Shown here in pieces: positions 713 to 33,899 of a stretch of DNA of 35,689 nt. The notes below the pieces were generated by a model. It was not told the DNA's origin. It ran no database searches and saw only the letters and a program-made list of their open reading frames with translations. A program made the translations under genes and the position numbers. Each line of letters starts with the position of its first letter. Position 1 is the first letter of the stretch. The stretch comes from a virus, in the IMG/VR virus record IMGVR_UViG_3300030104_007095, positions 5,388 to 41,076 of that record; one strand, written 5' to 3'.

Positions 713-3100
713 TTATTTACCTTGATTTTTGTATTGAAAACCTGGTCCTTTACCTTGAGAGTCAAGTTTTTTAAGGTTTATCTTTGCTCTCAACATAGCT
801 ATATCTTCTTGTGAGTCAATTCTAGCATTATCAATTTTATCTTTTTGTTGTAATTTTTGCTGCTCAAATCCAAGTTTAGTTTGATCAAATTGTAATTTAG
901 CCTGATCATTCATTGCTCGTTGTTGTAGTTCTTGCTGTTTTAATTGAATAACAGGATCTGGTTGACCTGCTCCACTCATTTTTGCTTGTAATTGCTGTAC
1001 TTCTTGTAAGAACTGAGCCTCTAACATAGCTATCTGTCCTTCAGTCATTGATTCAAGATCTTCTCCCTCAGCTACTTGCCCCATCTGTTGCTCTGCTTGT
1101 TGGATCTGCATTGCTACTGCTTCTTTTGCTTTTAATGAAACATGTTGTAAAATATGTTTATTTAATTCAACACCAATTTGTGGCATTAACTGAACAATCG
1201 ACGATAAACCAAACGTAACATGCGCTTGAATATGTGCATCATGATTTTGTCCTTCATATGCTTCAATCTTGTCCTCTTCAATTAATTTACGGTTCTCCAT
1301 GGTTGGGCTCATTGGTTCGGGTTTTTCCAATTTCATAATCTTGTCAATATCCGAAACACCCAAAGCCTCGTACATGCGAATATAAGCTTCTTTCACGTTA
1401 TGAAGTTGAGGCGCACTCGTTGCTAACTGAAGCTGAGTCTGTGCCAACTGAATGCGTTGTGCCATGGAGAATATATTCGGATCAGCCACGGGTATAATGT
1501 CCACGCGTTCATCGAAATCAGTTTGCTTAATAGCTCTATCTCCTCCAACAACAGCATAAGGATACTCTTCAGGAAGATATGTTTGAATAACATTTGCCAA
1601 TAGTTTGAATTCTTTTTGCATCGCATAATACATTCTTTTATGTATAGTGCTCATGATACGCGAACCGCGTTCTAATAAAGCAATAGTCGTTCCAACAGGC
1701 GCTCCTTGATTTGCATCACCAACTTGCATGTCAGCAATTTGCGCAAATCGTTGTCCTGCTTGTACAACAAATCCAAGTAAACCAAATAATGTTTGTGATG
1801 GTTCTTTGTATGGTAAAGGAAGTAATCCTTCTCGAATAGCACCAGATGGTGCGTCAACATCTCTAAACTCACCTGGTTGTAATGGTTCATCATTATCGGC
1901 GATCCGTAGACCACGTGTCTTGAAACCTGCAGGAAGGTTAGCTAATGTTCCAGCATCAATTAATTGACGTAATGCTTGTGTCGCGGTACGCGATAGGCCA
2001 CCAATTAAATGTATTAATCCAAAACCATAAAAACCTAAACCTGGTAAAAATTTAAAGTGAACAAAATATTGTTTCTTTTTGTAAAGCTCATCTCCCTCTT
2101 CATAGTTTCTTCTTATAGCTAAAACTTTTCCTGATGTTTCATCAATAGTAACAATGTAAGGTAATTTAATTCCTGTTGGTTCACCGCTACTGTCTACATC
2201 TTCGTATCCTTCTAGATCTAAATCAACATGCATTTCTAATAGTGTTACAATATAAGAGTCGCCTGTTTGTTGAATGCCATCTAAGTTACTAATAGTGCTT
2301 TGAATATTTCCTGTACTGTATGTTGATGTTTCAGGAGGTGCAGGGTTAATATCTATATCTCTATAAAAACCTGCTACTTGTTTTTTACGTACATCGTTTT
2401 CTGTTAATTTAACAACATGAGTAATACGCTCACATGAATCTAAATCGCTTGCGCTATATGGCACAATAAGATCTTCTGCTGGTATAAATTTAGAAACAGC
2501 TCTTCCTAGTTGCCCATCGTAATACACTTTTTTAAATGTTGAACCACTCAGTGGTAGATAAAATAACATTTGATCAAGCTCAGGTGTGTACTCTTCCATC
2601 ACGTTAGTGATTTGATAATTCATAAATTCTTTTACGCGTTGCGCTTGTTGATATACTTCAACATCTTCTTTTCCTATAACACGTGTTCGAACAGGGCCAT
2701 CCGCAGGCATCATTTCTTTAAAGGCGGTAGAACTAAATTGTGTAACTGCTTCCGCTAATAAAGGATGTGTCACGGAACTCGCACCGCGAAACGGTCTTGT
2801 TCTTTCTTGAAACTTTACTCCAAGTAGATCTAATCCCTTTGTATATGTTGTAGCCCATTCATCTCTTGATGATTTGTCATTTTCAAAATCAGCCACTAAA
2901 TCACTAGCAATTATTCCTAGTTCATTGTCATCCATATTTTCTGCTAGATTAGCATAAAAATCTTCTTCTATTTCTGGTTCATCAGAAACAATTGTTTCCT
3001 CCGTAACTACTTCAATCTCTACTGGTTCTTCATTTTGAATTGCTTCTTCGATTGTTTCACCAACAACAGATTGTATTTTTTGATCTATATTATCAGCCAT
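713..3100 (-). CDS. Portal protein (head-tail connector), 795 aa
   Basis: This is the head vertex ring subunit through which DNA enters and leaves. Recognition rests on overall resemblance to large portal proteins of marine podovirus-like phages. There is an acidic N-terminal extension (about 1-60), then a core with RTRPFRGASSVTHPLLAEA near 100-120, AFKEMMPADGPVRTRV, the F-L-P-L-S-G-S-T-F-K stretch and FIPAEDLIVPYSASDLDS. The last 170 residues are Gln-rich and coiled-coil-like (LQAKMSGAGQPDPVIQLKQQ and following), as in the barrel or crown region of long portals. At 795 aa it is longer than T7 gp8 (536) and P22 gp1 (725). It lies after terL and an 817-aa unknown gene, on the same strand and with only 6 bases between it and that gene. 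The ATG start at 3098-3100 has no better alternative. Confidence 0.85.
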   Translation of the reverse strand: MADNIDQKIQSVVGETIEEAIQNEEPVEIEVVTEETIVSDEPEIEEDFYANLAENMDDNELGIIASDLVADFENDKSSRDEWATTYTKGLDLLGVKFQERTRPFRGASSVTHPLLAEAVTQFSSTAFKEMMPADGPVRTRVIGKEDVEVYQQAQRVKEFMNYQITNVMEEYTPELDQMLFYLPLSGSTFKKVYYDGQLGRAVSKFIPAEDLIVPYSASDLDSCERITHVVKLTENDVRKKQVAGFYRDIDINPAPPETSTYSTGNIQSTISNLDGIQQTGDSYIVTLLEMHVDLDLEGYEDVDSSGEPTGIKLPYIVTIDETSGKVLAIRRNYEEGDELYKKKQYFVHFKFLPGLGFYGFGLIHLIGGLSRTATQALRQLIDAGTLANLPAGFKTRGLRIADNDEPLQPGEFRDVDAPSGAIREGLLPLPYKEPSQTLFGLLGFVVQAGQRFAQIADMQVGDANQGAPVGTTIALLERGSRIMSTIHKRMYYAMQKEFKLLANVIQTYLPEEYPYAVVGGDRAIKQTDFDERVDIIPVADPNIFSMAQRIQLAQTQLQLATSAPQLHNVKEAYIRMYEALGVSDIDKIMKLEKPEPMSPTMENRKLIEEDKIEAYEGQNHDAHIQAHVTFGLSSIVQLMPQIGVELNKHILQHVSLKAKEAVAMQIQQAEQQMGQVAEGEDLESMTEGQIAMLEAQFLQEVQQLQAKMSGAGQPDPVIQLKQQELQQRAMNDQAKLQFDQTKLGFEQQKLQQKDKIDNARIDSQEDIAMLRAKINLKKLDSQGKGPGFQYKNQGK

Positions 3101-3106
3101 AATTTT

Positions 3107-5560
3107 TTATAACCTATTAATGTCTATAAAGCCACCAAAATGAAATGTAGGTATTTCAATAGAACCACCTTTGCTTTTAAGCTTTATATTATTCTTAGTC
3201 AGTAAGTTTATGACTTTTGTGGAGTCGAGGATTTTTCCGTAACCTTCGTTTCGCGACGACGCAATTGCTTTGATCGTGGAGATGATACTGTCGAGATACT
3301 CGATATTGAAGCTGGTAGCCCCATCGCCTTCCATTCTTTCGCTGATACTTTCTTGAAGCCCATTTATATTCTCCTTATATTCATTGGATTCTATATAGTC
3401 TGAAACCCATTCAGACGGAATATACATCATATCCTTATCTTTTCCAAATACTTTTTCAAAGCTGTTCTGCATGTCTTTTTCGCTAGGCATACCATCACTT
3501 AGTGCTGAAGCCACAAAACCTCCTGGAACTGGGGTAATATTAAAGTCTAATCCTGTTAATTTATGTAACTGCTGCACATCTTCTTGGGTAAAACTTGATT
3601 GAATATATAGTTGAATTGTAGGTGTTGCATTAGGATTAATACTCTCTCCTTCATCAAGAATATTAAAATTACTTGCTCCCATAGCATCTTGATCTAAATG
3701 CAATCCTAATAAAGATAATATTTGTTTTCTTTGACTCTCTTCTAAAGGAACAACTCCATTTTTAGTCTTAACAGTCAAGGGAACAATAACGTTAAAATTA
3801 GCTTTTCCATCATACGTACCTAAACCTGTTATCATTCTAGATACTTCTGCTTTTTCACCTATAACTGCTGAAATAAGATTTTCCATAACTGAAGGCTGTT
3901 TATTTTTTTTGCTTATCAGTTTAGTTAAATTACTTTTATGGACCTGATTAATTTGATTCATTAATACAGTGTCATTAGGAAAATTATTAATTAACTGTTC
4001 TATTTTTTTACCGTTAGGCGTAAGATAACTTCCCACTTCAATAGTTGCTTTCATTGATTCTGAATAAGGGCCAACTGTAGCTTGAAGTTTTTCTACAAAC
4101 TGAGGATCAACTAACTCTTCACGATTTAGTTTATCATCTTGAAATACAAATCCTTGATCTTGTAAATCCTTTACTAACTTTTCTCCCATTTGAGCATAGT
4201 TTGTAGCACCGCCTAAGTTTTTGCTTTCTCTAAAAGCTGACCATATTTTTGCCTGTAATTCAAAAGGTTGTAACTCTTCTCCTTCAGGTAATGTTTTGTT
4301 TACCTCATCGGTTAAGTTTCCTAACGCTTCCGTTACCAATGCATAAAGCTCAGGTTTAGATGTTAACATCTTTTGATCAATTCCAAAAATTTCAGACATT
4401 TGCAAATCAATAACGGTATTCGGTTCGCGATCCGACAGACCATTAAAATATTTAAAAGTATCTACATAGTTACCAAACTTAGGGCTGTTAATATCATTCT
4501 CAGGATTTAACAAAAATTTATTTAAAGATGCTCCTTGACGAAACCCTATACGGATAGGTCTATTATTAATATGATCAGAGAAAACACCGATAGCTACATT
4601 AAGATTTTGATAAGGAGTTAAACCTCCAGACGTAACAGACAATATATCATAGAAATCATTTTGTTCTTCAGGAGTAAAATCTGATAAAAAATTATCTAAC
4701 CACTGACTTCCTTTTTGATACCAATATCTCTCATCTGCACCTCCTTCTAATGCTTTATTTATGAGATCTAAATCAGGTAATTTAAATCCACTATTATTAG
4801 CTAGTTCAACTACATCAACATTAGAATTTTTATTTATTTCTTTAATTGTATTTTGTTTAACATCGTTTAATGTTTTTACGTTAAATTTATAATCAATAAT
4901 AGGCGCTTCTTTATTTAAGTAATCAATTTCTCTAAGATCTACTTCACCATTAATTTTATCAGGGACAAGAGCTTCAATGTAAAACTTTGTGTTTTTATCT
5001 TTGGCTAAAAAATCTTTAGGGTTAATTGTTTCAACACTGGTATCTTCTGTTTGAGGGTCACTATCTGTTAAAAAATTTTTTCTTTGTTGATCTATTTTTT
5101 TGTATTGATTTGTAAGATCTTTAATTATTTTATCTGTTCCTTCTTTTGCTAATTCTTCAGCAACAGCTTCAGCACTTGTTGTAACAACTGTTTTTTTAGG
5201 ATCATTATCCTCTGGATCTGGCTCAGGCATTTGATCGGGAAGATCTGGAAGTATTCTTCCTTCTTGATCTATTGTTGTTATTTTTTCATCATCATCTTTT
5301 TTTGTTTGTAAAACAATATTATCTAAGGACGTATCGCCGACCACGGGGGGCGCATTATAAAAACTGTCTCCGTATGTTTTATATTCTTTAATTCGTTCTG
5401 ATTCAGTTTGAGGAAATAATGTTTCGAGATCTACTAAATCATTGGCACCGTAACCTGAAAGATCTATATTTTGCCCTTTAAAATATTCAATAACAGCAGG
5501 AACAGACATCCCCATCTGTGTTGCAATGACCGTTAGAGGTACTGCAGCTTGAACTACCAT
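3107..5560 (-). CDS. 817-aa virion-associated protein of unknown function
   Basis: This very large gene is inserted between terL and portal; its ATG begins one base from the terL stop, so the three are co-transcribed. The N-terminus (MVVQAAVPLTVIATQMG, then MSVPAVIEYFKGQNIDLSGYG) looks like a short helical recognition segment. Residues about 60-180 are acidic, Pro-rich and probably disordered (DQMPEPDPEDNDPKK). The middle is mixed alpha/beta without a motif I know. The last 22 residues carry a Gly-Gly tag, SKGGSIEIPTFHFGGFIDIN, followed by RL, resembling tags on other large proteins in this window. A structural or ejected protein is most likely. I see no catalytic motif. Confidence 0.7.
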   Translation of the reverse strand: MVVQAAVPLTVIATQMGMSVPAVIEYFKGQNIDLSGYGANDLVDLETLFPQTESERIKEYKTYGDSFYNAPPVVGDTSLDNIVLQTKKDDDEKITTIDQEGRILPDLPDQMPEPDPEDNDPKKTVVTTSAEAVAEELAKEGTDKIIKDLTNQYKKIDQQRKNFLTDSDPQTEDTSVETINPKDFLAKDKNTKFYIEALVPDKINGEVDLREIDYLNKEAPIIDYKFNVKTLNDVKQNTIKEINKNSNVDVVELANNSGFKLPDLDLINKALEGGADERYWYQKGSQWLDNFLSDFTPEEQNDFYDILSVTSGGLTPYQNLNVAIGVFSDHINNRPIRIGFRQGASLNKFLLNPENDINSPKFGNYVDTFKYFNGLSDREPNTVIDLQMSEIFGIDQKMLTSKPELYALVTEALGNLTDEVNKTLPEGEELQPFELQAKIWSAFRESKNLGGATNYAQMGEKLVKDLQDQGFVFQDDKLNREELVDPQFVEKLQATVGPYSESMKATIEVGSYLTPNGKKIEQLINNFPNDTVLMNQINQVHKSNLTKLISKKNKQPSVMENLISAVIGEKAEVSRMITGLGTYDGKANFNVIVPLTVKTKNGVVPLEESQRKQILSLLGLHLDQDAMGASNFNILDEGESINPNATPTIQLYIQSSFTQEDVQQLHKLTGLDFNITPVPGGFVASALSDGMPSEKDMQNSFEKVFGKDKDMMYIPSEWVSDYIESNEYKENINGLQESISERMEGDGATSFNIEYLDSIISTIKAIASSRNEGYGKILDSTKVINLLTKNNIKLKSKGGSIEIPTFHFGGFIDINRL

Positions 5561-7021
5561 TTAATAATACTCGGGTTGTTGTTCGTACAGTGGTTTAATT
5601 GGGTCTTCATAATCATCCTTCAGCGCAATAAAATTACCTTGACGATAACGCATCAATGCTTGCGTCATACTATCAACTAAATCATCATGCTCACCATAAG
5701 GAAATGCGGCGCATTCTTCAATCATTTCTTCCGCGAATTTTCTTTCAGGGGCCCATACTTGTCCTGATTCAAAAATAGGCGAAACAGAATTTACTCTTGT
5801 TAACTTATCGTTACCACGTGACGGCGAATAGCTTACCACAGGAATTCCTATTTGTCTAAGTTCTTGTATCAAGGGCATACCACTTGCTTTTGCTTCCACA
5901 ATAATTGTTTCTGGTTCCCAATACTCGTATTGCTCCAAAGCAATCTTTTTTAATTCAGGAAATTCCCATCGCTCTTTAATACAATCCAATAAAATAATAT
6001 TATCTTGGTTATAACCTGCTTTAAAAATTCCCCATGTACTAATCGCACTGAAATCTGCTTTTTCTTTTTTACTGAATGCGGTGTCATAACTTTGTATAAT
6101 GTGAACAAGTTCAGGCATATCTTCTTTTTCCCATGTCTTCCACCATTCACGTTTTATAATAGCTCCTTCTTGAGAGGTTGGTTGTTGTTGATATTGCGCT
6201 TCCCACGACATAACAGGTAAGTTTGATTTGATAGACTCTAATTCTTGTTGTTTCCAGTACTCGGGCCAAATAGGTTTACCACTTGGAAGTAAAGCAGGGA
6301 ATTCTACTACCTCCCACTGATCCGCTTTAGTTTCTGCTTGTTGTTTTATTAAACGACCCGTCAAATCGCGCTCCGACCAACGTGTCATAACGACAACTAT
6401 AGCTCCACCTGGTTGTAAACGTTGCCTTGGTCCTGACATATACCACTCAAACGCGTTATCAAAATTAGTTTCACTTATACTTTGCTCTGAATGAGGGTCA
6501 TCAATGATCAATAGATCTGCACCACGTCCAGTAATAGCGCCACCGATACCAGCTCCAAAATATTCTCCTGCATGATTTGTTTCCCAACGTCCCGATGCCT
6601 TACTATCTGCACGTAATCTAACATCTTTAAATATTTTCTTGTATCCTTCGTCGTCCATAAGGTTACGCATTTTTCTACCAAACCTATATGAGAGCTCTGC
6701 TGTGTGAGTTGCTTGGATAATCTTTGTTTTTGGTTTCTTACCCATTAACCAAGCTGGAAATAAGTACGAAGCAAATTCTGATTTAGTGTGTCTTGGTGGC
6801 ATATTAACAATTAATCGCTTTAACTTGCCAGATGCTATGTCTTCAAATTTTTTAGCCATTACATTGTGGTGATATCCATCAATAAATTCGGGCCAAACCA
6901 TTTTAACAAAGTGCATAAAGCTATCTTTTGCTTTAGCTGCATCATCCTGCATCGCAATTGCCAATAAAAGCCTTAATTCTTCGTCCGAATACTTTTCAAA
7001 TTTATTATTTTCTTGATCCAT
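5561..7021 (-). CDS. terL: Terminase large subunit (packaging ATPase/nuclease)
   Basis: This is the motor that pumps DNA into the prohead and cuts it. The ATPase domain comes first: a variant Walker A, MPPRHTKS (74-81), Walker B LLIIDD (170-175) and the coupling motif TRW (213-215). The C-terminal RNase H-like nuclease domain has the acidic set D313 (QSYDTAF), D323, E376 (IIVEAKASG) and D446/D447 with D450 (HDDLVDSMT). The 486-aa length is normal for T4-type/Terminase_6 large subunits. The ATG at 7019-7021 follows AGGAG on the minus strand with 5 bases spacing. Upstream is a 256-base structured gap. The small subunit is encoded about 1.5 kb upstream, separated by a nuclease gene. Confidence 0.95.
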   Translation of the reverse strand: MDQENNKFEKYSDEELRLLLAIAMQDDAAKAKDSFMHFVKMVWPEFIDGYHHNVMAKKFEDIASGKLKRLIVNMPPRHTKSEFASYLFPAWLMGKKPKTKIIQATHTAELSYRFGRKMRNLMDDEGYKKIFKDVRLRADSKASGRWETNHAGEYFGAGIGGAITGRGADLLIIDDPHSEQSISETNFDNAFEWYMSGPRQRLQPGGAIVVVMTRWSERDLTGRLIKQQAETKADQWEVVEFPALLPSGKPIWPEYWKQQELESIKSNLPVMSWEAQYQQQPTSQEGAIIKREWWKTWEKEDMPELVHIIQSYDTAFSKKEKADFSAISTWGIFKAGYNQDNIILLDCIKERWEFPELKKIALEQYEYWEPETIIVEAKASGMPLIQELRQIGIPVVSYSPSRGNDKLTRVNSVSPIFESGQVWAPERKFAEEMIEECAAFPYGEHDDLVDSMTQALMRYRQGNFIALKDDYEDPIKPLYEQQPEYY

Positions 7022-10386: not shown

Positions 10387-10588
10387 GTTTGTGGTCGCGT
10401 GTATCACGGTGGGCGTATGTTGTTACCTTTATGTTTATCATACGCCTTACCAAACCTTCATGCGCGACTGCAGGTACGATGAATTCCTACAAGGTAATTT
10501 AAGTGATCAATATTGTACGTGGTTGTACTTTGAAATGATCGACGAGAACTCATGGGTTCGACAAATAATAGAGGCATTAGATGGCTAA
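10379..10588 (+). CDS. Small membrane/periplasmic protein, 69 aa, Cys-containing
   Basis: ATG 10379 overlaps the stop region of the upstream gene by 8 bases; a longer in-frame opening at 10268 lies entirely inside that gene and lacks a ribosome binding site. Residues 2-19 are a hydrophobic anchor or signal (IKFVVACITVGVCCYLYV). The remaining part has HTPYQTFMRDCRYDEFLQGN and YCTWLYFEMI, with two further cysteines. It looks like a conserved kind of small phage inner-membrane protein with a periplasmic domain. The product ends 8 bases into the methyltransferase gene. Confidence 0.6.
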   Translation: MIKFVVACITVGVCCYLYVYHTPYQTFMRDCRYDEFLQGNLSDQYCTWLYFEMIDENSWVRQIIEALDG

Positions 10589-11375
10589 AAAATTAAAAAA
10601 TTTTTATTTAGGAGATTGTTCAAACATATTACCAACAATTAATAAGGAAACTGTTGATGTAATAATAACCTCTCCTCCTTATAATATTGGAAGATTATAT
10701 AATCAGTATGATGATAATAGAAAAGATTATATTGAGTGGCTAACAATAATACTTAATGATTGTTGTAGAATACTAAAATCAAATGGTCATTTATTTTTAA
10801 ATTTAGCTTCAACAAAAAAAGACCCTTTTGCTTGTTATAAAATAGCAGAACGCTTAGATTGGAAATTACAAAATAATATTATCTGGGCAAAGTCAGTTGA
10901 GATTGATGGATATGTAAAAGGATATAATACTCCAACTCTTAGTAAAAGATATTTAAAAAATGGTTGGGAACATATTTTTCATTTTACTAAAGAGGGTAAT
11001 ACAGAAATAGATTTAGAATGGTCTGGAGTGCCTTATAACAAAGATTATAATAATGCGGAAAGAGCATTCAAAAGAACTGGAAAAACTTGGACTCCGACTA
11101 CTACTTGTTGGTATTACACTTATAAAAGTAAAGCTACTAAAGAAATTAACAAACAAATAACAGGCGATAAACTACACCCAGCTATTTATCCCAATAGTTT
11201 AGTTGAAAAATGTATTAAAGTTTCTGGGTTAAAAAAAGGTATTGTTTTAGATCCTTTTATGGGAACTGGTACAACAGGTTTGGTAGCAAAAAAATATAAT
11301 TTAGATTTTGTAGGTATAGAGATAGATGAAGACTATTTTGCATTTGCAAAAAATAGAATATTGGAGAGTAAATAA
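10581..11375 (+). CDS. DNA methyltransferase, beta class (N4-cytosine or N6-adenine)
   Basis: Motif IV, TSPPYNIG (30-37), comes first and the AdoMet-binding motif, DPFMGTGTT (224-232), near the C-terminus, the beta-class order. F-Y-L-G-D near the N-terminus is motif X-like. S-P-P-Y is usual in N4-cytosine methyltransferases but also occurs in N6-adenine enzymes, so the base is undecided. The length (264 aa) is normal. No restriction enzyme gene is adjacent, so it is a phage orphan enzyme, probably for protection against host restriction or for marking its own DNA. The gene is visibly more AT-rich than the next methyltransferase and uses AGA almost exclusively for Arg, suggesting separate acquisition. 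Confidence 0.85.
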   Translation: MAKKLKNFYLGDCSNILPTINKETVDVIITSPPYNIGRLYNQYDDNRKDYIEWLTIILNDCCRILKSNGHLFLNLASTKKDPFACYKIAERLDWKLQNNIIWAKSVEIDGYVKGYNTPTLSKRYLKNGWEHIFHFTKEGNTEIDLEWSGVPYNKDYNNAERAFKRTGKTWTPTTTCWYYTYKSKATKEINKQITGDKLHPAIYPNSLVEKCIKVSGLKKGIVLDPFMGTGTTGLVAKKYNLDFVGIEIDEDYFAFAKNRILESK

Positions 11376-11376
11376 A

Positions 11377-12678
11377 ATGACAGTTAAAATTTTACGCGGA
11401 GATAACCGCAACACATTAAAAACATTAGAAGATAAAAGTATTCATACCGTTGTAACATCACCACCCTATTGGGGTTTACGGGATTATGGAACTGCTGAAT
11501 GGGAAGGTGGAGACAAAAGTTGCGACCATGTAGCTAACCCAAATGCTACAAAAAAAATGGGTAATGAAGAATTTAATAAAAACAGACCTTCAAGAGAGGA
11601 GACAAAAACAAAAGGGTATTATGAAAATATTTGTCCTAAATGCGGAGCAAGAAGAATTGATAATCAATTAGGTCTAGAAGAAACTCCTGAAGAGTACGTA
11701 AACAACCTCGTAGATGTATTTAGAGAGATTAAAAGGGTATTACGGGACGATGGGACGGTGTGGTTAAATCTTGGTGATAGTTATTCGTCTGGCGGACGAC
11801 GAACCACGACAAATCAATCATTACGTGGTGATAAAGATTACGGTGTCACGAGACCTGCGCCCAGTAAAGGTATTAAACCAAAAGACTTAATCGGAATACC
11901 GTGGCGCGTCGCGTTCGCATTGCAGCAAGATGGATGGTATTTACGACAAGATATTATTTGGCATAAACCTAATCCCATGCCTGAAAGTGTACGTGATAGA
12001 TGCACTAAAGCGCATGAATATATTTTTTTATTAAGTAAGAATGTAAAATATTATTATGATCATGAGGCTATTAAAGAACCAAGTGCGGAGGGAACTTTAT
12101 TAAGACTGTCACAAAAAAATTTACAAAATCAAAAAGGATTAGAGAGAGCACACGCAGGTGTGAAATCTAATGGTAATATGAAAGCAGTGGGTGGTTTGAA
12201 AAAAAATAAACGATCCGTTTGGACGGTGACAACGAAACCTTTTAAAGAGGCACACTTTGCAACTTTTCCAATGGACTTAATAGAGCCTTGTATTAAAGCT
12301 GGATCTAGTGAGCATGGATGTTGTAGTAAATGTGGCAATCCTTACATCAGAGATGTTAAAGTTGTGTCAGTCCCTGAAAGAACAACAAGAAATAACATGG
12401 TAGGTGTCATACCTGGTAGAAATAAAACAACAAGAATGAACAGTAAAGAAATGAAACCTTTGGTGAGAGAACAAAAAGGATGGGTAGCAACATGTAATTG
12501 TGATGCAGATGTAATAAAATGTGTTGTATTAGATCCGTTCGGTGGAGCGGGTACCACGGGAATTGTTGCGAGTAACCATAATCGTAATGCAATACTTTGT
12601 GAACTAAATGATGAATATTCTGACATTGCAGAGAAAAGAATAGAGTCTAATTTACCGCTGTTTTCTGGGAAAAATTAG
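11377..12678 (+). CDS. DNA methyltransferase, beta class, with Cys-rich insertions
   Basis: The start is ATG 11377 after GGAGAG; an in-frame ATG at 11326 lies inside the preceding gene and is not used in my reading. Motif IV is SPPYWGLRDYG (28-38) and the AdoMet motif is DPFGGAGTT (386-394), again beta-class order. Two Cys clusters interrupt the fold: C49-x-H51 with C86-P-K-C89, and a later CCSKCGNPY with CNCD just before the AdoMet motif. Both look like zinc ribbons that could help target recognition. The 433-aa length is larger than average because of these insertions. Codon use is richer in CGN and GC than the neighbouring methyltransferase. The 3' end overlaps the recurrent word GCTGTTTTCTGGG (12657-12669). 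Confidence 0.85.
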   Translation: MTVKILRGDNRNTLKTLEDKSIHTVVTSPPYWGLRDYGTAEWEGGDKSCDHVANPNATKKMGNEEFNKNRPSREETKTKGYYENICPKCGARRIDNQLGLEETPEEYVNNLVDVFREIKRVLRDDGTVWLNLGDSYSSGGRRTTTNQSLRGDKDYGVTRPAPSKGIKPKDLIGIPWRVAFALQQDGWYLRQDIIWHKPNPMPESVRDRCTKAHEYIFLLSKNVKYYYDHEAIKEPSAEGTLLRLSQKNLQNQKGLERAHAGVKSNGNMKAVGGLKKNKRSVWTVTTKPFKEAHFATFPMDLIEPCIKAGSSEHGCCSKCGNPYIRDVKVVSVPERTTRNNMVGVIPGRNKTTRMNSKEMKPLVREQKGWVATCNCDADVIKCVVLDPFGGAGTTGIVASNHNRNAILCELNDEYSDIAEKRIESNLPLFSGKN

Positions 12679-26537: not shown

Positions 26538-26729
26538 TGCTTTCTCTAATAATACTTCAAGTCGTATCACTCGTTCTCTTATGTCTGGTATGTCTTGGAG
26601 TATTATTTTTTCTAGTTGCTGTTGCTGTGACTCAACTGCTTCTAATCGTTGTGACATCATTCCGTAAGTTACTCCAGCACTTACCAAAATCAATCCTAAC
26701 CAAATAGCATTTCTAAAATTAGTTTCCAT
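26526..26729 (-). CDS. 67-aa membrane-anchored coiled-coil protein
   Basis: Residues about 8-25 are a membrane segment (AIWLGLILVSAGVTYGMM) and the rest is an acidic, Gln-rich coiled coil (RLEAVESQQQQLEKIILQDI). This anchor-plus-coil plan is seen in phage spanin-like and holin-associated proteins, but no Cys-lipobox or partner gene is visible. It is translated from a TAATG junction with the 866-aa gene, at the end of the late operon, a location where lysis genes often lie. Confidence 0.6.
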   Translation of the reverse strand: METNFRNAIWLGLILVSAGVTYGMMSQRLEAVESQQQQLEKIILQDIPDIRERVIRLEVLLEKALDN

Positions 26730-29329
26730 TATGCAACCATTGGTTGTGGTTTTTTATTCCCTATTAATGAAGCAATCCCACCGTGTTTAGCTGTAAATAA
26801 AGGTAGTCCTACACTTTCTAATTTTGCAACTAAAGCTGGATCTAAATTTGCTTGATCTGTTGGAATAGGATCAGGAATTCCAGATACTACGGATGCCATA
26901 TCAAAATTATTATTAGGAACAGGAACATTTATATTAGATACTTCTTCTTCTATAATTTCATTACGCACATCTTCGCCTTCTTGAAGATCTTCCTCTAACA
27001 TTTTTCCTTTTTCAAATATGTTTTCTTTAACTTTAAGATCATTCAATAAATCTAAAACTTTATCTAATTCTTGCTTATTTAATGTGTCTTTCATATCATC
27101 ATAAACACCTTCAAACATTTTTACTGTTTCACCTATTGAACTTGGATCTTCATTATGATGAATGTTAAATAACTCTCTAAAAATATCTACTTTAGTATTA
27201 AACTTTAAAGTTTGTTTAGGATTATATACATCAGCTATCTTTGAAGCTAATTTTGGATTTGCAAATACTTTTCCTACACCGTATCTTATAGCCCATAAGC
27301 CTAAAATACCCTTTATACCTTTTGTAAAAATTCCATCGTCTTCATTAAAAGCCGCAGTGCCACCTTTATAAGCACCACCCGCTGCAAATATACCTCCAAT
27401 AAGGTTTTGTGCACCAGTTAATTGAAATCTTCTTTGTAAAAATGCTGATGGATTACCTATTTTTATACCTTCAATAAATGCACCAGTTGTAATTAAATCT
27501 TTAATTTGCTGTTTGTTTACACCAGCAATTTTAAATAGCTCGTCAGTAAATTCACTTTTTCCTCTTATATCAAAGCCTAAATTTTTATTTAATAATTGTG
27601 GATCAAAATCAAGTTGTCTTGATCTACCTAGTATATCTTTTGAAGTATCTGCAACAGATTTAGCAAAAGCGCTAGACAAATACTCATTTATATAAACTTT
27701 AAATTGTTCTTTTCCTAAAATAGTCTGTAGCTCATTTAGCATTTCAGGAGATTTAATTTTTAAAAGATCTCCTAGTATTTGATCTCTTGGTTTTTTTGAA
27801 GTTATAAAGCCCGGTTTAAAAAGATTTTTTTCATATTTACCAAAAATATTTCCTGTAGGTCCTTCATACAATGATTTTAAAGCAGCGGTAAAGGTGTTGG
27901 CGTTATCATGTGCTCTTAAAATATCAGGCAAAAAATTGTCAGATATACCTTTTTTAATTAAATTTTTTTCAATGTTTAATAATATGTCATCATTTGCTTC
28001 TCTAAATTGAGATAATAATCTTGAAAAGGAGTCTTTAAATACTTTATCACCTTCTGTTAAATCTTTAAAAAGACCAGTTATATCCTCATTAAAGTTTCTA
28101 ATTGTTTCATAACTTACTTTATTTCCGTTTTTTTGTACCTCAATTTGATAACGACGCATTGTTTCAATTAAATCTTTTAGTCCTTTTCCTTCGACTCTAC
28201 TTAAACCAGCGTTTTCAAAAAACCCTGATTTTACTATGGTTTCATAACTTTCAATAATACCATTTTCATTTGTAGGAAGATTTTTAAACTGTCTTAAAAC
28301 TTTACCATCAACTAAATTAGTAAAAAATTTACTTAAATCATCTGCACGAAAAACATTTTTGTCTATTAACATAGCATGAGCATCGTAAGCTTTATCCCAT
28401 AGTCTACCCATTAGCTTATTCATTGTGTTAAATCTTTTATCAACTCTAGCAAAAATATCTGTCCCACCTTTAGTAAAAGTTGTTATAGGTGCATAAAGTT
28501 CTACCAATTTTTGAAACTTTTCATTTATTGTTCCTACTTGTGTTGCAAGAGTTTTTCTAACTTTACCACCAATATAAGGTAAAGGAGATAAAGCTCTTTG
28601 CATGCCACTATATTTTGCTATTTGTCCAAAGTTAAATTGAATACCTAATCTTTCTGCCGCTCGATAAGCTTGTTGAACGATAGGATCTTTCAAATCAGTT
28701 AATTTTCTAAAGCCTGCTCCAATTAGTTGAGGTAAACCTAAGCCTAAAGCTTCATAAAACATCGCCTCTTTAGTATCAGCATCTACAGAGTTTAAAAATT
28801 TTAACATATCAGGATCTCCTGATAAAATAAAATTAGCAATATCAAAAACAGCTCTTCCCGCTACATCACCAAATACTCCTCCAAAATAAGTTTTACCTCC
28901 AGCTATAGCTAAATTTTTAGGATTAAATAATTTTACTCCCTTATAAAGTTTTTTTAAATTTTCTTCATCTTTAAGGTTCATCATTTCTTTAAAACCGCCT
29001 GATGACGCAAGCATAGAACCAATTATTCCTGATGTTGTTCTATCGATACCAAGCTGTTCAACAGGAGATAACTCTTCTTTATCTATAAAACTAAGATCAT
29101 CTAAAAGGTTTAAAGCATTCTTTTTTTCTTCTGATTGCATTGCCTCATCCAGTAAAGGAATTTTAAAACCTTTATCTTCTTCTAATGCGCGAAGGTCTCC
29201 CTCTCCTGTAACTTTTACCTCATCTAATCTTTCAACTAATTTTAATATTCTTTGAGCTTCGTTTTTTGTAGGAGTATCTCCCTCTATAGTTATAGAAAAG
29301 GGTAAACCATCTATGAATATTTCTCCCAT
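26729..29329 (-). CDS. 866-aa large virion protein, probable internal/ejection protein
   Basis: This is a long, mostly helical protein with short strongly hydrophobic segments (NLIGGIFAAGGAYKGG, GIKGILGLWAIRYGVG near residue 680-705). A central region (QQAYRAAERLGIQFNFGQIA near 214-233, then ALSPLPYIGGKVRKTL) resembles long proteins ejected with DNA in marine podovirus-like phages. The C-terminus carries a Gly-Gly tag (FTAKHGGIASLIGNKKPQ). It sits last of four large late genes. No lytic transglycosylase motif was found. The call is inference from size, order and composition. Confidence 0.6.
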   Translation of the reverse strand: MGEIFIDGLPFSITIEGDTPTKNEAQRILKLVERLDEVKVTGEGDLRALEEDKGFKIPLLDEAMQSEEKKNALNLLDDLSFIDKEELSPVEQLGIDRTTSGIIGSMLASSGGFKEMMNLKDEENLKKLYKGVKLFNPKNLAIAGGKTYFGGVFGDVAGRAVFDIANFILSGDPDMLKFLNSVDADTKEAMFYEALGLGLPQLIGAGFRKLTDLKDPIVQQAYRAAERLGIQFNFGQIAKYSGMQRALSPLPYIGGKVRKTLATQVGTINEKFQKLVELYAPITTFTKGGTDIFARVDKRFNTMNKLMGRLWDKAYDAHAMLIDKNVFRADDLSKFFTNLVDGKVLRQFKNLPTNENGIIESYETIVKSGFFENAGLSRVEGKGLKDLIETMRRYQIEVQKNGNKVSYETIRNFNEDITGLFKDLTEGDKVFKDSFSRLLSQFREANDDILLNIEKNLIKKGISDNFLPDILRAHDNANTFTAALKSLYEGPTGNIFGKYEKNLFKPGFITSKKPRDQILGDLLKIKSPEMLNELQTILGKEQFKVYINEYLSSAFAKSVADTSKDILGRSRQLDFDPQLLNKNLGFDIRGKSEFTDELFKIAGVNKQQIKDLITTGAFIEGIKIGNPSAFLQRRFQLTGAQNLIGGIFAAGGAYKGGTAAFNEDDGIFTKGIKGILGLWAIRYGVGKVFANPKLASKIADVYNPKQTLKFNTKVDIFRELFNIHHNEDPSSIGETVKMFEGVYDDMKDTLNKQELDKVLDLLNDLKVKENIFEKGKMLEEDLQEGEDVRNEIIEEEVSNINVPVPNNNFDMASVVSGIPDPIPTDQANLDPALVAKLESVGLPLFTAKHGGIASLIGNKKPQPMVA

Positions 29330-31960
29330 TTAACCTCCTACAATGGATTCTAATTCTTCAAGTGAAAAGCTTGTTTTTTTACCCGTATAATTGTCTGGGT
29401 TTATTTCTTTAATTTTAATTCTTATCTGCTCTATATTATCTTTAAATTTAGGAAAAGTTTCTGCATTAAACTGTCCTGATAATACTCCAAATATTTTTGT
29501 TTTATCAATTAAAAAATCAGTTAATTTATCTATTCTTCTAAACACGATATCTTGTGGCTCAAAAGTAGTAACCGCAGTTCTCTCTTCCGCTCTTGCTCTT
29601 ACTGACTCAGGTGTCCCTCTTTTACCTCTTAAACTCATTATATCTGCTACAGCATCTGATAATTGTTGAACTGATGATTTTACCTCTGCAATTTCAGGTT
29701 TAGTTACATATTGCATTGCTGACCCTAAAGTTGTTGAACTGTCATCAGGAAAAATTTTATCACCAGCAATATTATCTAAATCATTTATAACCCCTGCAAT
29801 TTTATTGAAAGATTGTTGGAACTTTCCTGTGTAACCAACTAAACTAGGATCAGCAGCAATTATTTGTTTTAACGCTAGTAGTTCATTTATTCCATCATAA
29901 GCAGCCGTATATAAAGAATTAAAGAAAGATCTATCTGCTTCTGTTCCCGCTGCTTGCAAAGAACCTTTACTAATTAAATCTTCCGCATCGGTTATAAGTC
30001 CTTCATAATATGCAGAACCTCGCTCACCGTCTTCAGGAGTGCCATCTGCTCTTTTAACAACAGAACCTCCTTGTGCAAATAAATCTGTTACAGAACCTTT
30101 TTCAATACTTGTTTTAGAGTTAGGAACTATTTGATATCCACCAGTAATTTTTTTACCTACATCTTCAATACGAACATCAATAACTTCATCGTCTTTTTGC
30201 ATTTTAACAAAAGTTGTTCCTGCACTTACTGTTGTTAAATTCTCTCTCATTACGCTATCTAAGTCTTCAAATTCTTTGTCAGAGTAAAACTCTACTTTTT
30301 CAGATAACTTGTTGAAATATGCTTCTTTATCAGCAACAGGTTTTACCGTTGTTGTTAATTTATTATTAGAGTCTAAAAATAATGTAGATCCCTCTGGCGC
30401 CCCTGCTAAAATAGTTTGTATGTTAGGTATAGCTGAAATGTTATCAGGTAAATTTACAACTTCGCCATTTTCTTTTTTCACAACATAAGTTGTGCCTTTA
30501 GTTGAGTCAGCCGCTTCATCTATATTAATTAAATTATCGCTTCCGTCGTAAGTAAATTTTGTTCCTGGATTATATACTTCATAAAATGCTTCCATATCCA
30601 CTGTCGTTTTTGGCCCATCATCTGTTTCAATTACTTTTGTAAATCCTGATTTAAGAGCAAGCAAATAATCGGACGTAGAGTTATCTCCTTTTATAATTGA
30701 TATGTTTTTTGTATTTTTTAATTTATCCGATAAATTTTTCTTTGCTGCTAAATCAGCTTGAACCGCTGCAGACAAAGCACCTGATGCTAGCTGTCCTGAT
30801 ACGGCTTGCTCTGTAGCCGCTCGTTTAGATCCTTTTTTACCAACTTCATCAAAAAATAATGCTCCTGCTTCTTCTGGTTGAGCTCCCATTCCATATGCAA
30901 ATCCAGCTTTAGATAAAGACATTAATGCATCAGCTATTCCTGCATCTTTATTTGGTAAGTAATAATCTTTTAATCCCATGTACATTGGTAAATATTCTTC
31001 TTGAAAAGATTTATTAACACTCCCTGCAGTGTTAAATTTTTGAATAGGTTGAACTGCTCCACCCATTGCATAACCCATGATACCTCTGTTCATATTTTCA
31101 AACTGTAAATTTTTCATAATACGATCATCAATGTTATCACTTGCTGACAATGATTCTGTATTTAAATTTTGATTAGGAAAAGAGCTCATGTAACCACCAC
31201 TAGCAACACCTACTGGCTGTTGAGGCATTTCCATACTGCCGTCTTCTATTTGTGCAATACCTGTGTTTGCCGTTTCAGCGTTCATCATTTGCATAACAGG
31301 CTGTACTAAAGTTAAAACACTATCAGGTGTTCTATCTGCATCTTCTCTACCAACAATAGAAGCTAATTCATCACGTCTATCTTCTTCCGTTAAATTATCT
31401 CCTCGTATAGCTTGCATTAATTCATCATATGTGTCAGACTCTGCAACTTCTTTTCTTGACTGTTCTCCTTCTACTAAAACTTTTTCTGCTACTGCTTGAG
31501 GATTTTCTTCTTTAAAACCATCCATGATACCAACGTTTTCAACGTCTACTTGTTCTTCTACCATTTCTCCTTGAGGAGGTGATCCTTCAGCTCTTTTCAT
31601 ACCTTGCATTTTTGCTATATCTTGCTTAAACAAATCAATAGCTTTCATTCCATCCTCAGATAGTATAAAATTATTTTCATCACTAAAAAGAATAGATCCT
31701 TCAGGTAAATAATTTAATAATACTCTTTGAAAACCTTGGTCTTTAATATCGTATTGTCCTCCATATTCACCAAAATCGTAAACAGTAGAATCATCTCCTT
31801 GATTTCTTCCTTTAGTAAAAAAATCTCCTATCGTTTTAAAAATTCCTTGAGACCCTGTTTCCCCTGACATGGGCGATCCTTCTTCTCTTTTTACAACGGG
31901 AGATGTTTCACGGATCACGGGCATCGGTCGTTGAAACATTGATCTATTTATAACAGCCAT
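29330..31960 (-). CDS. 876-aa large virion protein with repeated peptide tags
   Basis: The product is low in cysteine and has long polar segments between short motifs. A tag of the form R-[AE]-[DE]-G-[ST]-P-x-x-G-E recurs at 25-34 (REEGSPMSGE), 123-132 (RAEGSPPQGE) and 637-646 (RADGTPEDGE); the last is preceded by GGSVVK (631-636). Gly-Gly tags also occur at 251-258 (GVASGGYM) and 296-303 (GYAMGGAV). It is co-transcribed with the 292- and 353-aa genes through a TAATG junction. An internal or capsid-associated structural role is likely. No enzyme motif is seen. Confidence 0.6.
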   Translation of the reverse strand: MAVINRSMFQRPMPVIRETSPVVKREEGSPMSGETGSQGIFKTIGDFFTKGRNQGDDSTVYDFGEYGGQYDIKDQGFQRVLLNYLPEGSILFSDENNFILSEDGMKAIDLFKQDIAKMQGMKRAEGSPPQGEMVEEQVDVENVGIMDGFKEENPQAVAEKVLVEGEQSRKEVAESDTYDELMQAIRGDNLTEEDRRDELASIVGREDADRTPDSVLTLVQPVMQMMNAETANTGIAQIEDGSMEMPQQPVGVASGGYMSSFPNQNLNTESLSASDNIDDRIMKNLQFENMNRGIMGYAMGGAVQPIQKFNTAGSVNKSFQEEYLPMYMGLKDYYLPNKDAGIADALMSLSKAGFAYGMGAQPEEAGALFFDEVGKKGSKRAATEQAVSGQLASGALSAAVQADLAAKKNLSDKLKNTKNISIIKGDNSTSDYLLALKSGFTKVIETDDGPKTTVDMEAFYEVYNPGTKFTYDGSDNLINIDEAADSTKGTTYVVKKENGEVVNLPDNISAIPNIQTILAGAPEGSTLFLDSNNKLTTTVKPVADKEAYFNKLSEKVEFYSDKEFEDLDSVMRENLTTVSAGTTFVKMQKDDEVIDVRIEDVGKKITGGYQIVPNSKTSIEKGSVTDLFAQGGSVVKRADGTPEDGERGSAYYEGLITDAEDLISKGSLQAAGTEADRSFFNSLYTAAYDGINELLALKQIIAADPSLVGYTGKFQQSFNKIAGVINDLDNIAGDKIFPDDSSTTLGSAMQYVTKPEIAEVKSSVQQLSDAVADIMSLRGKRGTPESVRARAEERTAVTTFEPQDIVFRRIDKLTDFLIDKTKIFGVLSGQFNAETFPKFKDNIEQIRIKIKEINPDNYTGKKTSFSLEELESIVGG

Positions 31961-32838
31961 TAAATTACTCCTAACTTTTTCAATCCACCGAGACCAGCTA
32001 ATGCGCCAATACCTGTTCCTATTCCTGCTTGAAGAGGACTAACACCAGCATTTTGAGCCGTGTTAATCATTTGTGCGGAAGATGGAGCTCCTTGTAAAAT
32101 ATCTCCATAAAAACCTAATTGTTGATACGGTTGCATAATTTTTTGTAATTGATTTTGTCTTGCGATATCTAGTGATTGTTGTCCAAATTGTTGTTGCAAT
32201 CCACCAATACCAAGTAAATTTTGAACATCTTGGCCACCCATTGCTTGAGCTTGTGAACCTAGTTGTGCATATTGGCCACCTAGTGCGCCAATACCAAGAC
32301 CAGCTAAACGTTGTCTCTCTAATTGATTTTGAGCTCCTTGTAATGCTTGAGAATAATTTTGTGCATTAAGACCAGCTAAAGCTTGTGCCTGTGCTTGTTG
32401 TTGAGCTCCTGATAATTCTGCTTGTTGAACCCCGTAACGCGAACCACCAAACACACCACCTTGAACTGCATCTCCTGCTAATTGATTTTGTTGTTGAGCT
32501 GCTTGTTTATTTAATTGAGCCATTGTAGCATCAATAACTTGTTGCTGAAATGGGTTCGAATAAGACTCTATTTGTGCTGTGGTAGGAGCTTGAGCAATAC
32601 CTGCTAATAAATCTTGTCCTTGTTGTGTAGCCGCTTGTGCTTGTTGTAAGTAAGGTTGATAAGCTCCAATTCCTTGTAATGCGTTAGCAAAGGCAAGTTG
32701 TTGAGGAAAACTAAATTGTGCTTGTTGTAAATCAGGAAGAGTATAACCTTGTTCCGTTAATGCTTTTGCTGTGTCTATAAGACCAAGCTTACGTGCCTCA
32801 ATATCTGGGGCTTCTCTTTGTACGTATTCTTGAACCAT
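31960..32838 (-). CDS. Gln/Ala-rich virion protein, 292 aa
   Basis: The protein is dominated by Gln, Ala, Gly and Leu and is almost entirely helical. SNPFQQQVIDATMAQL (94-109) and GGSRYGVQQAELSG (131-144) are conserved-looking blocks that I associate with a podovirus-type internal-virion protein. The C-terminus is Gly-rich (AGIGTGIGALAGLGGLKKLG) and could insert into membrane. No Cys. It is coupled by TAATG to both neighbours. Such proteins are usually ejected with the DNA and form part of the membrane channel; that function is inferred. Confidence 0.65.
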   Translation of the reverse strand: MVQEYVQREAPDIEARKLGLIDTAKALTEQGYTLPDLQQAQFSFPQQLAFANALQGIGAYQPYLQQAQAATQQGQDLLAGIAQAPTTAQIESYSNPFQQQVIDATMAQLNKQAAQQQNQLAGDAVQGGVFGGSRYGVQQAELSGAQQQAQAQALAGLNAQNYSQALQGAQNQLERQRLAGLGIGALGGQYAQLGSQAQAMGGQDVQNLLGIGGLQQQFGQQSLDIARQNQLQKIMQPYQQLGFYGDILQGAPSSAQMINTAQNAGVSPLQAGIGTGIGALAGLGGLKKLGVI

Positions 32839-33899
32839 TAAGCTACTCCTCTTGTTTCAGTGGATAGATTACCACCTTTTTCTAAATTTTTCATCACTTG
32901 ATACATTCTTTTTGCACCTTCTCTTCTATCACCATCACCTGCATTTCGTACAGCTTTTGCTGTAAATACAAATTCTCCATCACTTAACATAGCAGGTATA
33001 TCATCGCTTGTCCCTGTTCCAGGTCCATCTATCTGACCATTTTTGCGTGGAAAATATTTTTCTGATCCATCTGCTAATTGTATTATTCCACCTTCTGCTA
33101 CCTCTAACGGTCTATAAAAATCTGTTGGTAAATCTTCTATTGGTACACCAAACTCATCTTGTAAATTTGTATAATAGTATGGGTTAACACCTTGGCCCGA
33201 TACTTGAAACTCTTCAGGATTTTGATAGTATAAAGCATTTAGTGCATTAGGGTCACCAGGAACAAAATTATCTTGTGCATTTTTAGCTGCCATGTAAGAT
33301 GCAATAGGTAATCCTACTGAGCCCACCGTTGCAGCGGTTCCAAGATTAAAACCAAAACCTTTTTTATTTGCATTGTCTACAATTTTTTGTGCATTAGAAA
33401 CTTCAAACATACTAAAATTATCTGGATTAGATAAAATTTTATTAGCTTTTTCTAACTCAGCATTAACTGCTACATTTTGCGAAGGATCTCCAAAAGGATT
33501 TATTTTTTCAAAAAATTTACTTCCTAAATCTTTTGATAAAAGTTGTCCTTGCGAACCAATACCACTAAATAAATTACCATCAGTTAATCCAAATGTGGGA
33601 ATTCCTTTACCACCAAAACCTTGTATAGTTTTACCAAAAAATCCTGAACCTGCTAAGTTACCAATACCGTAAGCCATTAATGCACTCTTTAATGCATTTT
33701 CTGGTTTTTTCCCTGCAATAAGAGAACCAATACCTGCGCCTAAAGAAGCGCCCGCTGGTCCAGCAATCATAAAACCTAAAGCAGCGCCCGCTGGTTCGGC
33801 TACTTTTTTTACGGCTTTTTTTACTTTTTTAAATATTCCACCAACAAAACCACCAATTCCGTACTGAGGTATTGTTTGTAAAAATTGTTCGTCAATCAT
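32838..33899 (-). CDS. 353-aa virion protein with the SDGEFVFTAKAV domain
   Basis: It opens the late operon at ATG 33897-33899 (AAGGA upstream). The N-terminus has a basic and then Gly-rich hydrophobic segment (FMIAGPAGASLGAGIGSLIA near 43-62) like a membrane-active ejection protein. The last 65 residues contain DGPGTGTSDDIPAMLSDG (291-308) and EFVFTAKAVRNAGDGDRREG (309-328), a module that recurs in many phage tape-measure and virion proteins and whose exact role is not settled. It is preceded by VAEGGIIQLADGSEKYFPRK (268-287), another tag-like repeat. A virion or ejection protein is the best reading. Confidence 0.7.
   Translation of the reverse strand: MIDEQFLQTIPQYGIGGFVGGIFKKVKKAVKKVAEPAGAALGFMIAGPAGASLGAGIGSLIAGKKPENALKSALMAYGIGNLAGSGFFGKTIQGFGGKGIPTFGLTDGNLFSGIGSQGQLLSKDLGSKFFEKINPFGDPSQNVAVNAELEKANKILSNPDNFSMFEVSNAQKIVDNANKKGFGFNLGTAATVGSVGLPIASYMAAKNAQDNFVPGDPNALNALYYQNPEEFQVSGQGVNPYYYTNLQDEFGVPIEDLPTDFYRPLEVAEGGIIQLADGSEKYFPRKNGQIDGPGTGTSDDIPAMLSDGEFVFTAKAVRNAGDGDRREGAKRMYQVMKNLEKGGNLSTETRGVA

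What the first reader, a model, noticed from the sequence alone, without database searches (positions are those of the whole stretch)
26729..33899. Shared peptide tags in four large virion proteins
The same short motifs appear in otherwise unrelated large proteins. A Gly-Gly tag (TFHFGGFID, KHGGIASL, GYAMGGAV, GGFVGG, VAEGGIIQ) and the form R-[AE]-[DE]-G-[ST]-P-x-x-G-E occur in the 876-aa gene (three times), with Gly-Gly tags at the C-termini of the 817-aa and 866-aa genes and in the 353-aa gene. They look like a common recognition, processing or oligomerisation signal that marks proteins for packing into or ejection from the head.
Basis: partly seen in the sequence, partly recalled or inferred. 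Interest (0 to 1): 0.6.

Follow-up and report, generated by a model that had tools for sequence, protein, structure and literature searches.

The report
Docking tags on injected phage proteins
A marine phage and its many relatives carry the same short peptide tag on otherwise unrelated large proteins of the kind stored in the virus particle and injected into the host, which looks like a shared 'load me' or 'hold me' signal and could be used to predict which unknown phage proteins are injected.

Summary
The tags are real. All quoted strings are present, although the 817-aa gene lies at 3107-5560, outside the stated range, and plain GG counts are at chance. The extended tag is not at chance. A permuted peptide gave 6 hits in that collection. 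In 257 Gb of cellular genomes the tag gave 70 hits, 24 in frame. The 817-aa protein and a relative share 161 N-terminal residues (74%) and an identical last 20 residues around non-homologous cores. In loci found by portal homology only, the genes between TerL and portal form 40 families; 31 end in a GG tag, against 18 of 53 families of other genes. The tag also flanks the 'hook' of siphophage tape-measure proteins (8 of 10 sampled), and the 353-aa protein carries that hook. R-x-x-G-[ST]-P-x-x-G-E is a second real shared motif. Best reading: a docking/sorting peptide for virion-internal, ejected proteins, analogous to T4/P1 capsid-targeting sequences and encapsulin cargo peptides. Particle location, binding partner and cleavage are untested.

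The parts
3110..3169 (-). C-terminal tag of the 817-aa slot protein, GGSIEIPTFHFGGFIDINRL (aa 798-817)
   Evidence: 20 of 20 residues identical to the C-terminus of L058, whose core is not homologous; conserved at 50% overall identity
3107..5560 (-). 817-aa gene between TerL and portal (variable 'cargo' slot); aa 1-161 (5078-5560) are the conserved N-terminal module
   Evidence: AlphaFold2 low confidence, 756-817 below pLDDT 50
26732..26812 (-). C-terminal tag region of the 866-aa protein, VGLPLFTAKHGGIASLIGNKKPQPMVA (aa 840-866)
   Evidence: Kept in homologues at about 30% overall identity, and in L007, whose match covers only the C-terminal half; conservation peak; in a stretch below pLDDT 50 (778-866)
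26729..29329 (-). 866-aa putative internal/ejection protein
   Evidence: Foldseek: weak matches to uncharacterised phage proteins, two carrying LT_GEWL or M15B domains (E about 1e-3; low-confidence model)
30059..30079 (-). FAQGGSV tag in the 876-aa protein (aa 628-634), directly before the third R..G[ST]P..GE copy
   Evidence: homologues FADGGIV, FAKGGAV, KAEGGIV at the same place
31052..31072 (-). YAMGGAV tag in the 876-aa protein (aa 297-303)
   Evidence: homologues YAMGGLV, YANGGQV, FAMGGPV
31859..31888 (-). R-x-x-G-[ST]-P-x-x-G-E copy 1, REEGSPMSGE (aa 25-34)
31565..31594 (-). R-x-x-G-[ST]-P-x-x-G-E copy 2, RAEGSPPQGE (aa 123-132)
30023..30052 (-). R-x-x-G-[ST]-P-x-x-G-E copy 3, RADGTPEDGE (aa 637-646)
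31960..32838 (-). 292-aa protein, DNA-ejection-protein-like neighbour of the tagged genes; no extended tag
   Evidence: phrog_4287 'DNA ejection protein', E 6.5e-11
33075..33098 (-). AEGGIIQL tag upstream of the hook in the 353-aa protein (aa 268-275)
   Evidence: A-x-GG lies upstream of the hook in 17 of 20 non-redundant hook proteins, counted by eye from the listing; FAxGG in 8 of 10 siphophage/podophage tape-measure proteins
32937..33044 (-). Tape-measure 'hook' segment GQIDGPGTGTSDDIPAMLSDGEFVFTAKAVRNAG (aa 286-321)
   Evidence: Matches JBD30 TMP residues 1023-1056 (8rk3) and Douge TMP (8zdo) by sequence; 593 phage records, nearly all those listed being tape-measure genes; PHROG TMP families

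Best explanation
The tags are short linear docking (sorting) peptides on proteins that are carried in the virion and ejected into the host. A protein with a folded or swappable core ends in, or contains, a flexible stretch with F/Y/M-A-x-G-G-[I/L/V]-[A/V]. A common virion component recognises this stretch, so that the protein is recruited into the particle during assembly and/or held in the portal-tail channel until ejection. Shown: the tags exist, are selected at peptide level, are phage-specific, are exchanged as modules, and sit on slot (TerL-portal), ejection-cluster and tape-measure-type proteins. Inferred: the tagged proteins are in the particle; the tag docks as a short strand (modelled on the siphophage tape-measure hook, which has the same FAxGG element at its edge, and on T5, where the retained end of the tape measure forms a beta sheet with the hub protein); the partner is a portal, hub or shell protein.
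For: Phage-specific and in frame: at least 120 hits against 6 for a permuted peptide in viral contigs; 117 of 120 in frame in viruses against 24 of 70 in cellular genomes. Diverse codons, 73 distinct 27-mers of 116, about 39 families. Modularity: core replaced, last 20 residues identical. Slot enrichment in loci found by portal homology only: 49 of 64 non-redundant slot proteins have GG in the last 45 aa against 17.2 expected; 31 of 40 families against 18 of 53, Fisher p 5e-5. Ten or more of 38 tagged family representatives match tape-measure PHROGs. The tag flanks the hook in siphophage tape-measure proteins. Conserved ends after variable linkers. [quoted passage not shown] P1 DarB has an N-terminal one (PMC9024508).
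Against: No mass spectrometry for these phages was found, so virion location is inferred from gene neighbourhood and weak homology. A test for tags resembling each other within one genome, expected if the partner is phage-encoded, gave no support, though its null was biased. Both AlphaFold2 models are of low confidence in the tag region, which shows missing structure, not binding. Nine of 40 slot families lack a C-terminal GG. Part of the TMP signal could reflect the common hook module rather than a free-standing tag.
Confidence: 0.58

Rival explanations
1. The tag acts only during infection: like the tape-measure hook, it anchors the trailing end of an ejected protein in the tail hub so that the protein forms a channel in register with the tail. 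It plays no part in packing.
For: FAxGG is at the edge of the hook in 8 of 10 sampled tape-measure proteins. The JBD30 segment 1022-1066 is predicted to be a hook that anchors the tape measure in the baseplate (PMC11445458). The retained T5 pb2 C-terminus sits between hub subunits in a beta sheet (PMC10038345).
Against: The 817-, 866- and 876-aa proteins have the tag without the hook core. Internal tags and two or three tags per protein fit a trailing-end anchor less well.
Confidence: 0.25
2. The tag is a chaperonin-binding peptide that imitates the GroES mobile loop (GGIVL) and brings large late proteins to host GroEL.
For: These phages encode GroES, whose GG-hydrophobic segment (KTKGGIVLAEE, KTKGGLILGQE) resembles GGIASL or GGLVxI.
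Against: Tags have small or polar residues where GroES has its second and third hydrophobic residues; many tags (GGEV, GGRIGF, GGSV) do not fit. No test was run.
Confidence: 0.06
3. The tag is a maturation protease site cut after Ala-x-Glu/Gly-Gly or similar.
For: Tags lie in flexible stretches; tape-measure proteins and T4 internal proteins are processed (general knowledge; JBD30 cleavage at 1066 is a prediction).
Against: The residue before GG varies freely (E, D, N, K, M, Q, H, R), and the residues after GG are the more conserved ones. Cleavage a few residues from the C-terminus would have little purpose.
Confidence: 0.07
4. A mobile or repeated DNA element inserted in frame in many genes, like Rickettsia palindromic elements.
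For: The same short sequence occurs in unrelated genes.
Against: All synonymous codons are used, 73 distinct 27-mers of 116; length and flanks vary; 117 of 120 in frame.
Confidence: 0.01
5. Chance or low-complexity glycine-rich sequence.
For: Plain GG counts are at expectation.
Against: Permuted control, cellular-genome control and shuffles.
Confidence: 0.03

Closest known systems
T4 capsid targeting sequence and P1 DarB N-terminal packaging signal
   Same: A short terminal peptide is the only conserved part of a highly diverse set of internal proteins (T4, PMC3012670); in P1 the N-terminal 30 residues direct a reporter to the capsid (PMC9024508)
   Different: The P1 signal is N-terminal, and so is the T4 one (recalled); here the tags are mostly C-terminal or internal with another consensus, and also on tape-measure proteins
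Family 1 encapsulin targeting (cargo-loading) peptides, consensus SDGSLGIGSLKRS (PMC8346489)
   Same: Short, Gly/Ser/Leu-rich, usually C-terminal, on unrelated cargo of an HK97-fold shell; some phage tags look alike (FAEGGIASLKK; L216 ends MAQGGSVGIGSLF)
   Different: No shell binding shown; phage core is FAxGG-[I/L]-[A/V]; likeness could be coincidental
Siphophage tape-measure 'hook' (JBD30 gp46 residues 1022-1066; analogous T5 pb2 end)
   Same: The 353-aa protein has the hook core GPGTGTSDDIPAMLSDGEFV with a GG tag upstream; the FAxGG element lies at the edge of the hook in 8 of 10 TMPs
   Different: The 353-aa protein is far shorter than a tape measure; the other tagged proteins lack the hook core
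Podophage and crassvirus ejection/cargo proteins (T7, P22, crAss001 gp45-gp50; PMC10172136)
   Same: Large proteins stored in the head or tail and ejected; 292-aa protein matches a 'DNA ejection protein' PHROG
   Different: No loading tag turned up in the crAss001 passages read; homology to those proteins not shown here

Membership tests
Tape-measure hook module | Core GxGTGxSDxIPAxLSxGE[FY]V | tested here: met
   353-aa protein aa 286-321; 8rk3 1023-1056 E 1.7e-4 and 8zdo E 4e-7 for the 56-aa query; 593 phage records
Tape-measure hook module | GG tag just upstream of the core | tested here: met
   AEGGIIQL in the 353-aa protein; A-x-GG in 17 of 20 hook proteins by eye; FAxGG in 8 of 10 TMPs
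Tape-measure hook module | Hook core present in the 817-, 866- and 876-aa proteins | tested here: not met
   No TMP PHROG match; these are tag carriers, not hook members
Tape-measure protein (full) | Long alpha-helical protein that sets tail length | tested here: not met
   353 aa only; TMP matches in the 353-aa protein are confined mostly to the hook region
T4/P1-type capsid targeting sequence | N-terminal position | tested here: not met
   Tags are C-terminal or internal
T4/P1-type capsid targeting sequence | Sufficient to direct a protein into the capsid | not testable with these tools
   Needs reporter fusion and particle purification
Encapsulin targeting peptide | Consensus SDGSLGIGSLKRS | tested here: inconclusive
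   Partial likeness by eye in some tags; no statistical comparison
Encapsulin targeting peptide | Binds the inside of an HK97-fold shell | not testable with these tools
   No complex prediction available
Phage ejection protein | Present in particles and ejected | not testable with these tools
   Inferred from neighbourhood and PHROG/Foldseek matches
In-frame mobile DNA element (RPE-like) | Conserved nucleotide sequence between copies | tested here: not met
   73 distinct 27-mers of 116, all synonymous codons used

The most novel reading that the evidence does not exclude
A general injection tag: tailed phages of many kinds use one family of short peptides (F/Y/M-A-x-G-G-[I/L/V]-[A/V] and dialects) as an address that loads swappable cargo proteins, encoded in a variable slot between TerL and portal, into the particle for delivery to the host. 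Unknown injected phage proteins could then be recognised from sequence alone.
Probability: 0.35. Interest if true: 0.87.

Novelty: new variant of a known kind. Interest (0 to 1): 0.68.

Why it matters
How phages choose which large proteins to carry and inject is known for only a few model phages. A short, widespread, phage-specific tag on diverse uncharacterised proteins would give a sequence-only marker for injected proteins, make the loading question testable with simple fusions and deletions, and explain why the genes between TerL and portal in marine podophages can be exchanged so freely. It also links podophage ejection proteins and siphophage tape-measure proteins through one common element.

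Tried and rejected
Plain GG enrichment: rejected, counts at expectation. DNA-level mobile element: rejected by codon diversity. Within-genome similarity of tags (phage-encoded partner): observed mean 0.08 against null 3.64, but the null was dominated by seed-like tags and the pairs by loose matches, so not interpretable. AlphaFold2 of the 817-aa protein: mean pLDDT 44, no usable fold. AlphaFold2 of the 866-aa protein: core 290-560 confident, tail disordered; Foldseek PDB gave nothing, and BFVD gave only weak matches to phage proteins. Pfam and PHROG on large slot proteins gave almost nothing, so 'cargo' function is not established. A strict [FYM][AN].GG test upstream of the hook in podophages gave 5 of 20, because they use A-x-GG without the aromatic; the looser count of 17 of 20 was made by eye on the same listing. 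Literature: no text hit relevant to GGIASL-type strings in open-access papers, and no paper on a GG motif in phage or tape-measure proteins.
Full report
What the window is. The window is part of a 41-kb virus record. TerL (5561-7021), an 817-aa gene (3107-5560) and portal (713-3100) lie in a row on the minus strand; four genes (353, 292, 876 and 866 aa; 26729-33899) form a second minus-strand block. TerL, portal and the small terminase are recognised by PHROGs. The 292-aa protein matches a 'DNA ejection protein' family, and the 353-aa protein matches tape-measure families, mostly in one short stretch. The nearest named relatives by portal are Phage DSL-LC04 and the Pelagibacter phages HTVC023P and HTVC027P, about 52% identical.

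Check of the observation. Every quoted string is there. The 817-aa gene lies far outside the given coordinates. The pattern R-[AE]-[DE]-G-[ST]-P-x-x-G-E occurs three times in the 876-aa protein. Plain GG is at expectation in these proteins, so the claim cannot rest on GG. GGFVGG is a conserved N-terminus of the 353-aa family but is not the tag.

The extended tag is real. A degenerate DNA pattern for FA[DENK]GGIA[ST..][L/F] was run over the viral contigs. A pattern for the same residues in permuted order gave 6 stretches in the whole collection. The same tag pattern over 257 Gb of bacterial and archaeal genomes gave 70 stretches, 24 of them in frame. All synonymous codons are used, with 73 distinct 27-mers of 116, so the peptide and not the DNA is kept. 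The tagged proteins fall into about 39 families, several with the tag in the last 9-15 residues. Ten or more of 38 representatives match tape-measure PHROGs. In other proteins of the same loci, [FYM]A.GG[ILVAEYK][AVIY] exceeds shuffles 10- to 20-fold; L, W or V in place of F/Y/M is not clearly enriched.

The tag is a module. The 817-aa protein and L058 share their first 161 residues (74%) and their last 20 (100%, E 1.7e-9), while the roughly 575 residues between have no detectable similarity (best E 0.5). In the 866-aa family the ending VGLPLFAxxGGIASLMxxKKPQQMVA persists at about 30% overall identity. In both families the tag is a conservation peak after a variable linker. AlphaFold2 leaves both tails below pLDDT 50, which fits a flexible tail but proves nothing.

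The TerL-portal slot. To avoid choosing loci by the tag, 80 loci were fetched with a portal profile. The genes between TerL and portal in these loci range from about 90 to 1786 aa. In the non-redundant slot proteins, GG occurs in the last 45 residues in 49 of 64, against 17.2 expected from shuffles; other same-strand genes give 24 of 77 against 18.9. By family of cores the numbers are 31 of 40 against 18 of 53 (Fisher p 5e-5); where TerL is confirmed, 25 of 29 (p 6e-6). Typical endings are FANGGIATLGV and ASGGIARMLGE, EGGLVVNIFA and RHGGIMSLRRR. In two-gene slots the second gene often ends PPxxGPxPQGLxxL. The window's 817-aa gene occupies this slot. Almost none of these slot proteins has a recognised domain; the exceptions are a PcfJ-like domain in DSL-LC04 and DUF6973 in L254.

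The second motif. R..G[ST]P..GE occurs 1-5 times in the 876-aa homologues from viral contigs, with none expected from shuffles; the distant DSL-LC04 homologue (L033) lacks it. It also occurs in a few proteins of other families: the DSL-LC04 slot protein, the L254 slot protein, a 353-aa homologue (L028) and L168. In the window its third copy follows a GG tag directly.

The link to tape-measure proteins. Residues 286-321 of the 353-aa protein match JBD30 tape-measure residues 1023-1056 and two places in the Douge tape measure, and 593 phage records hold the module, nearly all those listed being tape-measure genes. [quoted passage not shown] In T5 the retained tape-measure end sits between hub subunits and forms a beta sheet with a hub hairpin (PMC10038345). 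In ten sampled tape-measure-type genes, FAxGG stands just before the hook core in eight, and often again after it. In 20 non-redundant hook proteins from the held loci, 17 have A-x-GG in the 45 residues upstream, counted by eye from the listing. So the tag of the 353-aa protein is part of a known module, and the free-standing tags on the other proteins have the same core.

Interpretation. Shown: a phage-specific, modular peptide tag under selection, found on tape-measure proteins, ejection-cluster proteins and variable slot proteins. Inferred: it is a docking or sorting peptide that brings proteins into the particle or holds them in the exit channel. [quoted passage not shown] It is not a member of these families: position and sequence differ, and function was not tested. 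Whether it acts in assembly, in ejection or in both cannot be told from sequence.

Limits. Virion location is not measured. The cellular control used one pattern. ORFs were called mechanically. Homology at the level of remote folds between slot cores was not excluded, so 'non-homologous' means not detected by BLASTP.

Noticed in passing
L218, L221, L223, L240, L243, L248, L266; L034 18717-19322: A second C-terminal ending on small proteins near TerL/portal: MVKARGCKLGRxKPTKxY or ARGGGMARxKPTKxY, and RGxGAAxxGxKF (L221, L228). Possibly another sorting tag.
   Followed up: partly
L131, L132, L138, L163, L165, L232, L245, L258: The second slot gene next to portal ends in GG...PPxxGPxPQGLxxL, a distinct C-terminal tag dialect.
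   Followed up: partly
L151 1367-2650: Protein with a weak RelA/SpoT-region match (E 6.5e-6, just under the Pfam cut-off) that ends in VVEKFAEGGIATLQFGDYR.
   Followed up: no
L033 10344-12821: DSL-LC04 slot protein (825 aa) with PcfJ-like domain, three N-terminal GG tags (FAMGG, MADGG, FAEGG) and one R..GSP..GE motif.
   Followed up: partly
L086 6535-8988, L165 4833-6161, L132 4944-6236: Slot proteins with twin-arginine-signal-like segments (weak PF10518 matches inside L086 and L165; N-terminal MDRRTLLKIMGG in L132), perhaps membrane-inserting stretches of ejected proteins.
   Followed up: no
L035 21952-26083 and 49164-50000; several tag-scan loci: A related motif GGR[IV][GP][FYM] (GGRIGF, GGRVGY) is far above shuffles (10 observed, 0.13 expected in the tag-scan loci).
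   Followed up: partly
window 10581-12678: Two adjacent genes with DNA-methyltransferase-like sequences (TSPPYN / TSPPYW motifs) read by eye in the early region.
   Followed up: no
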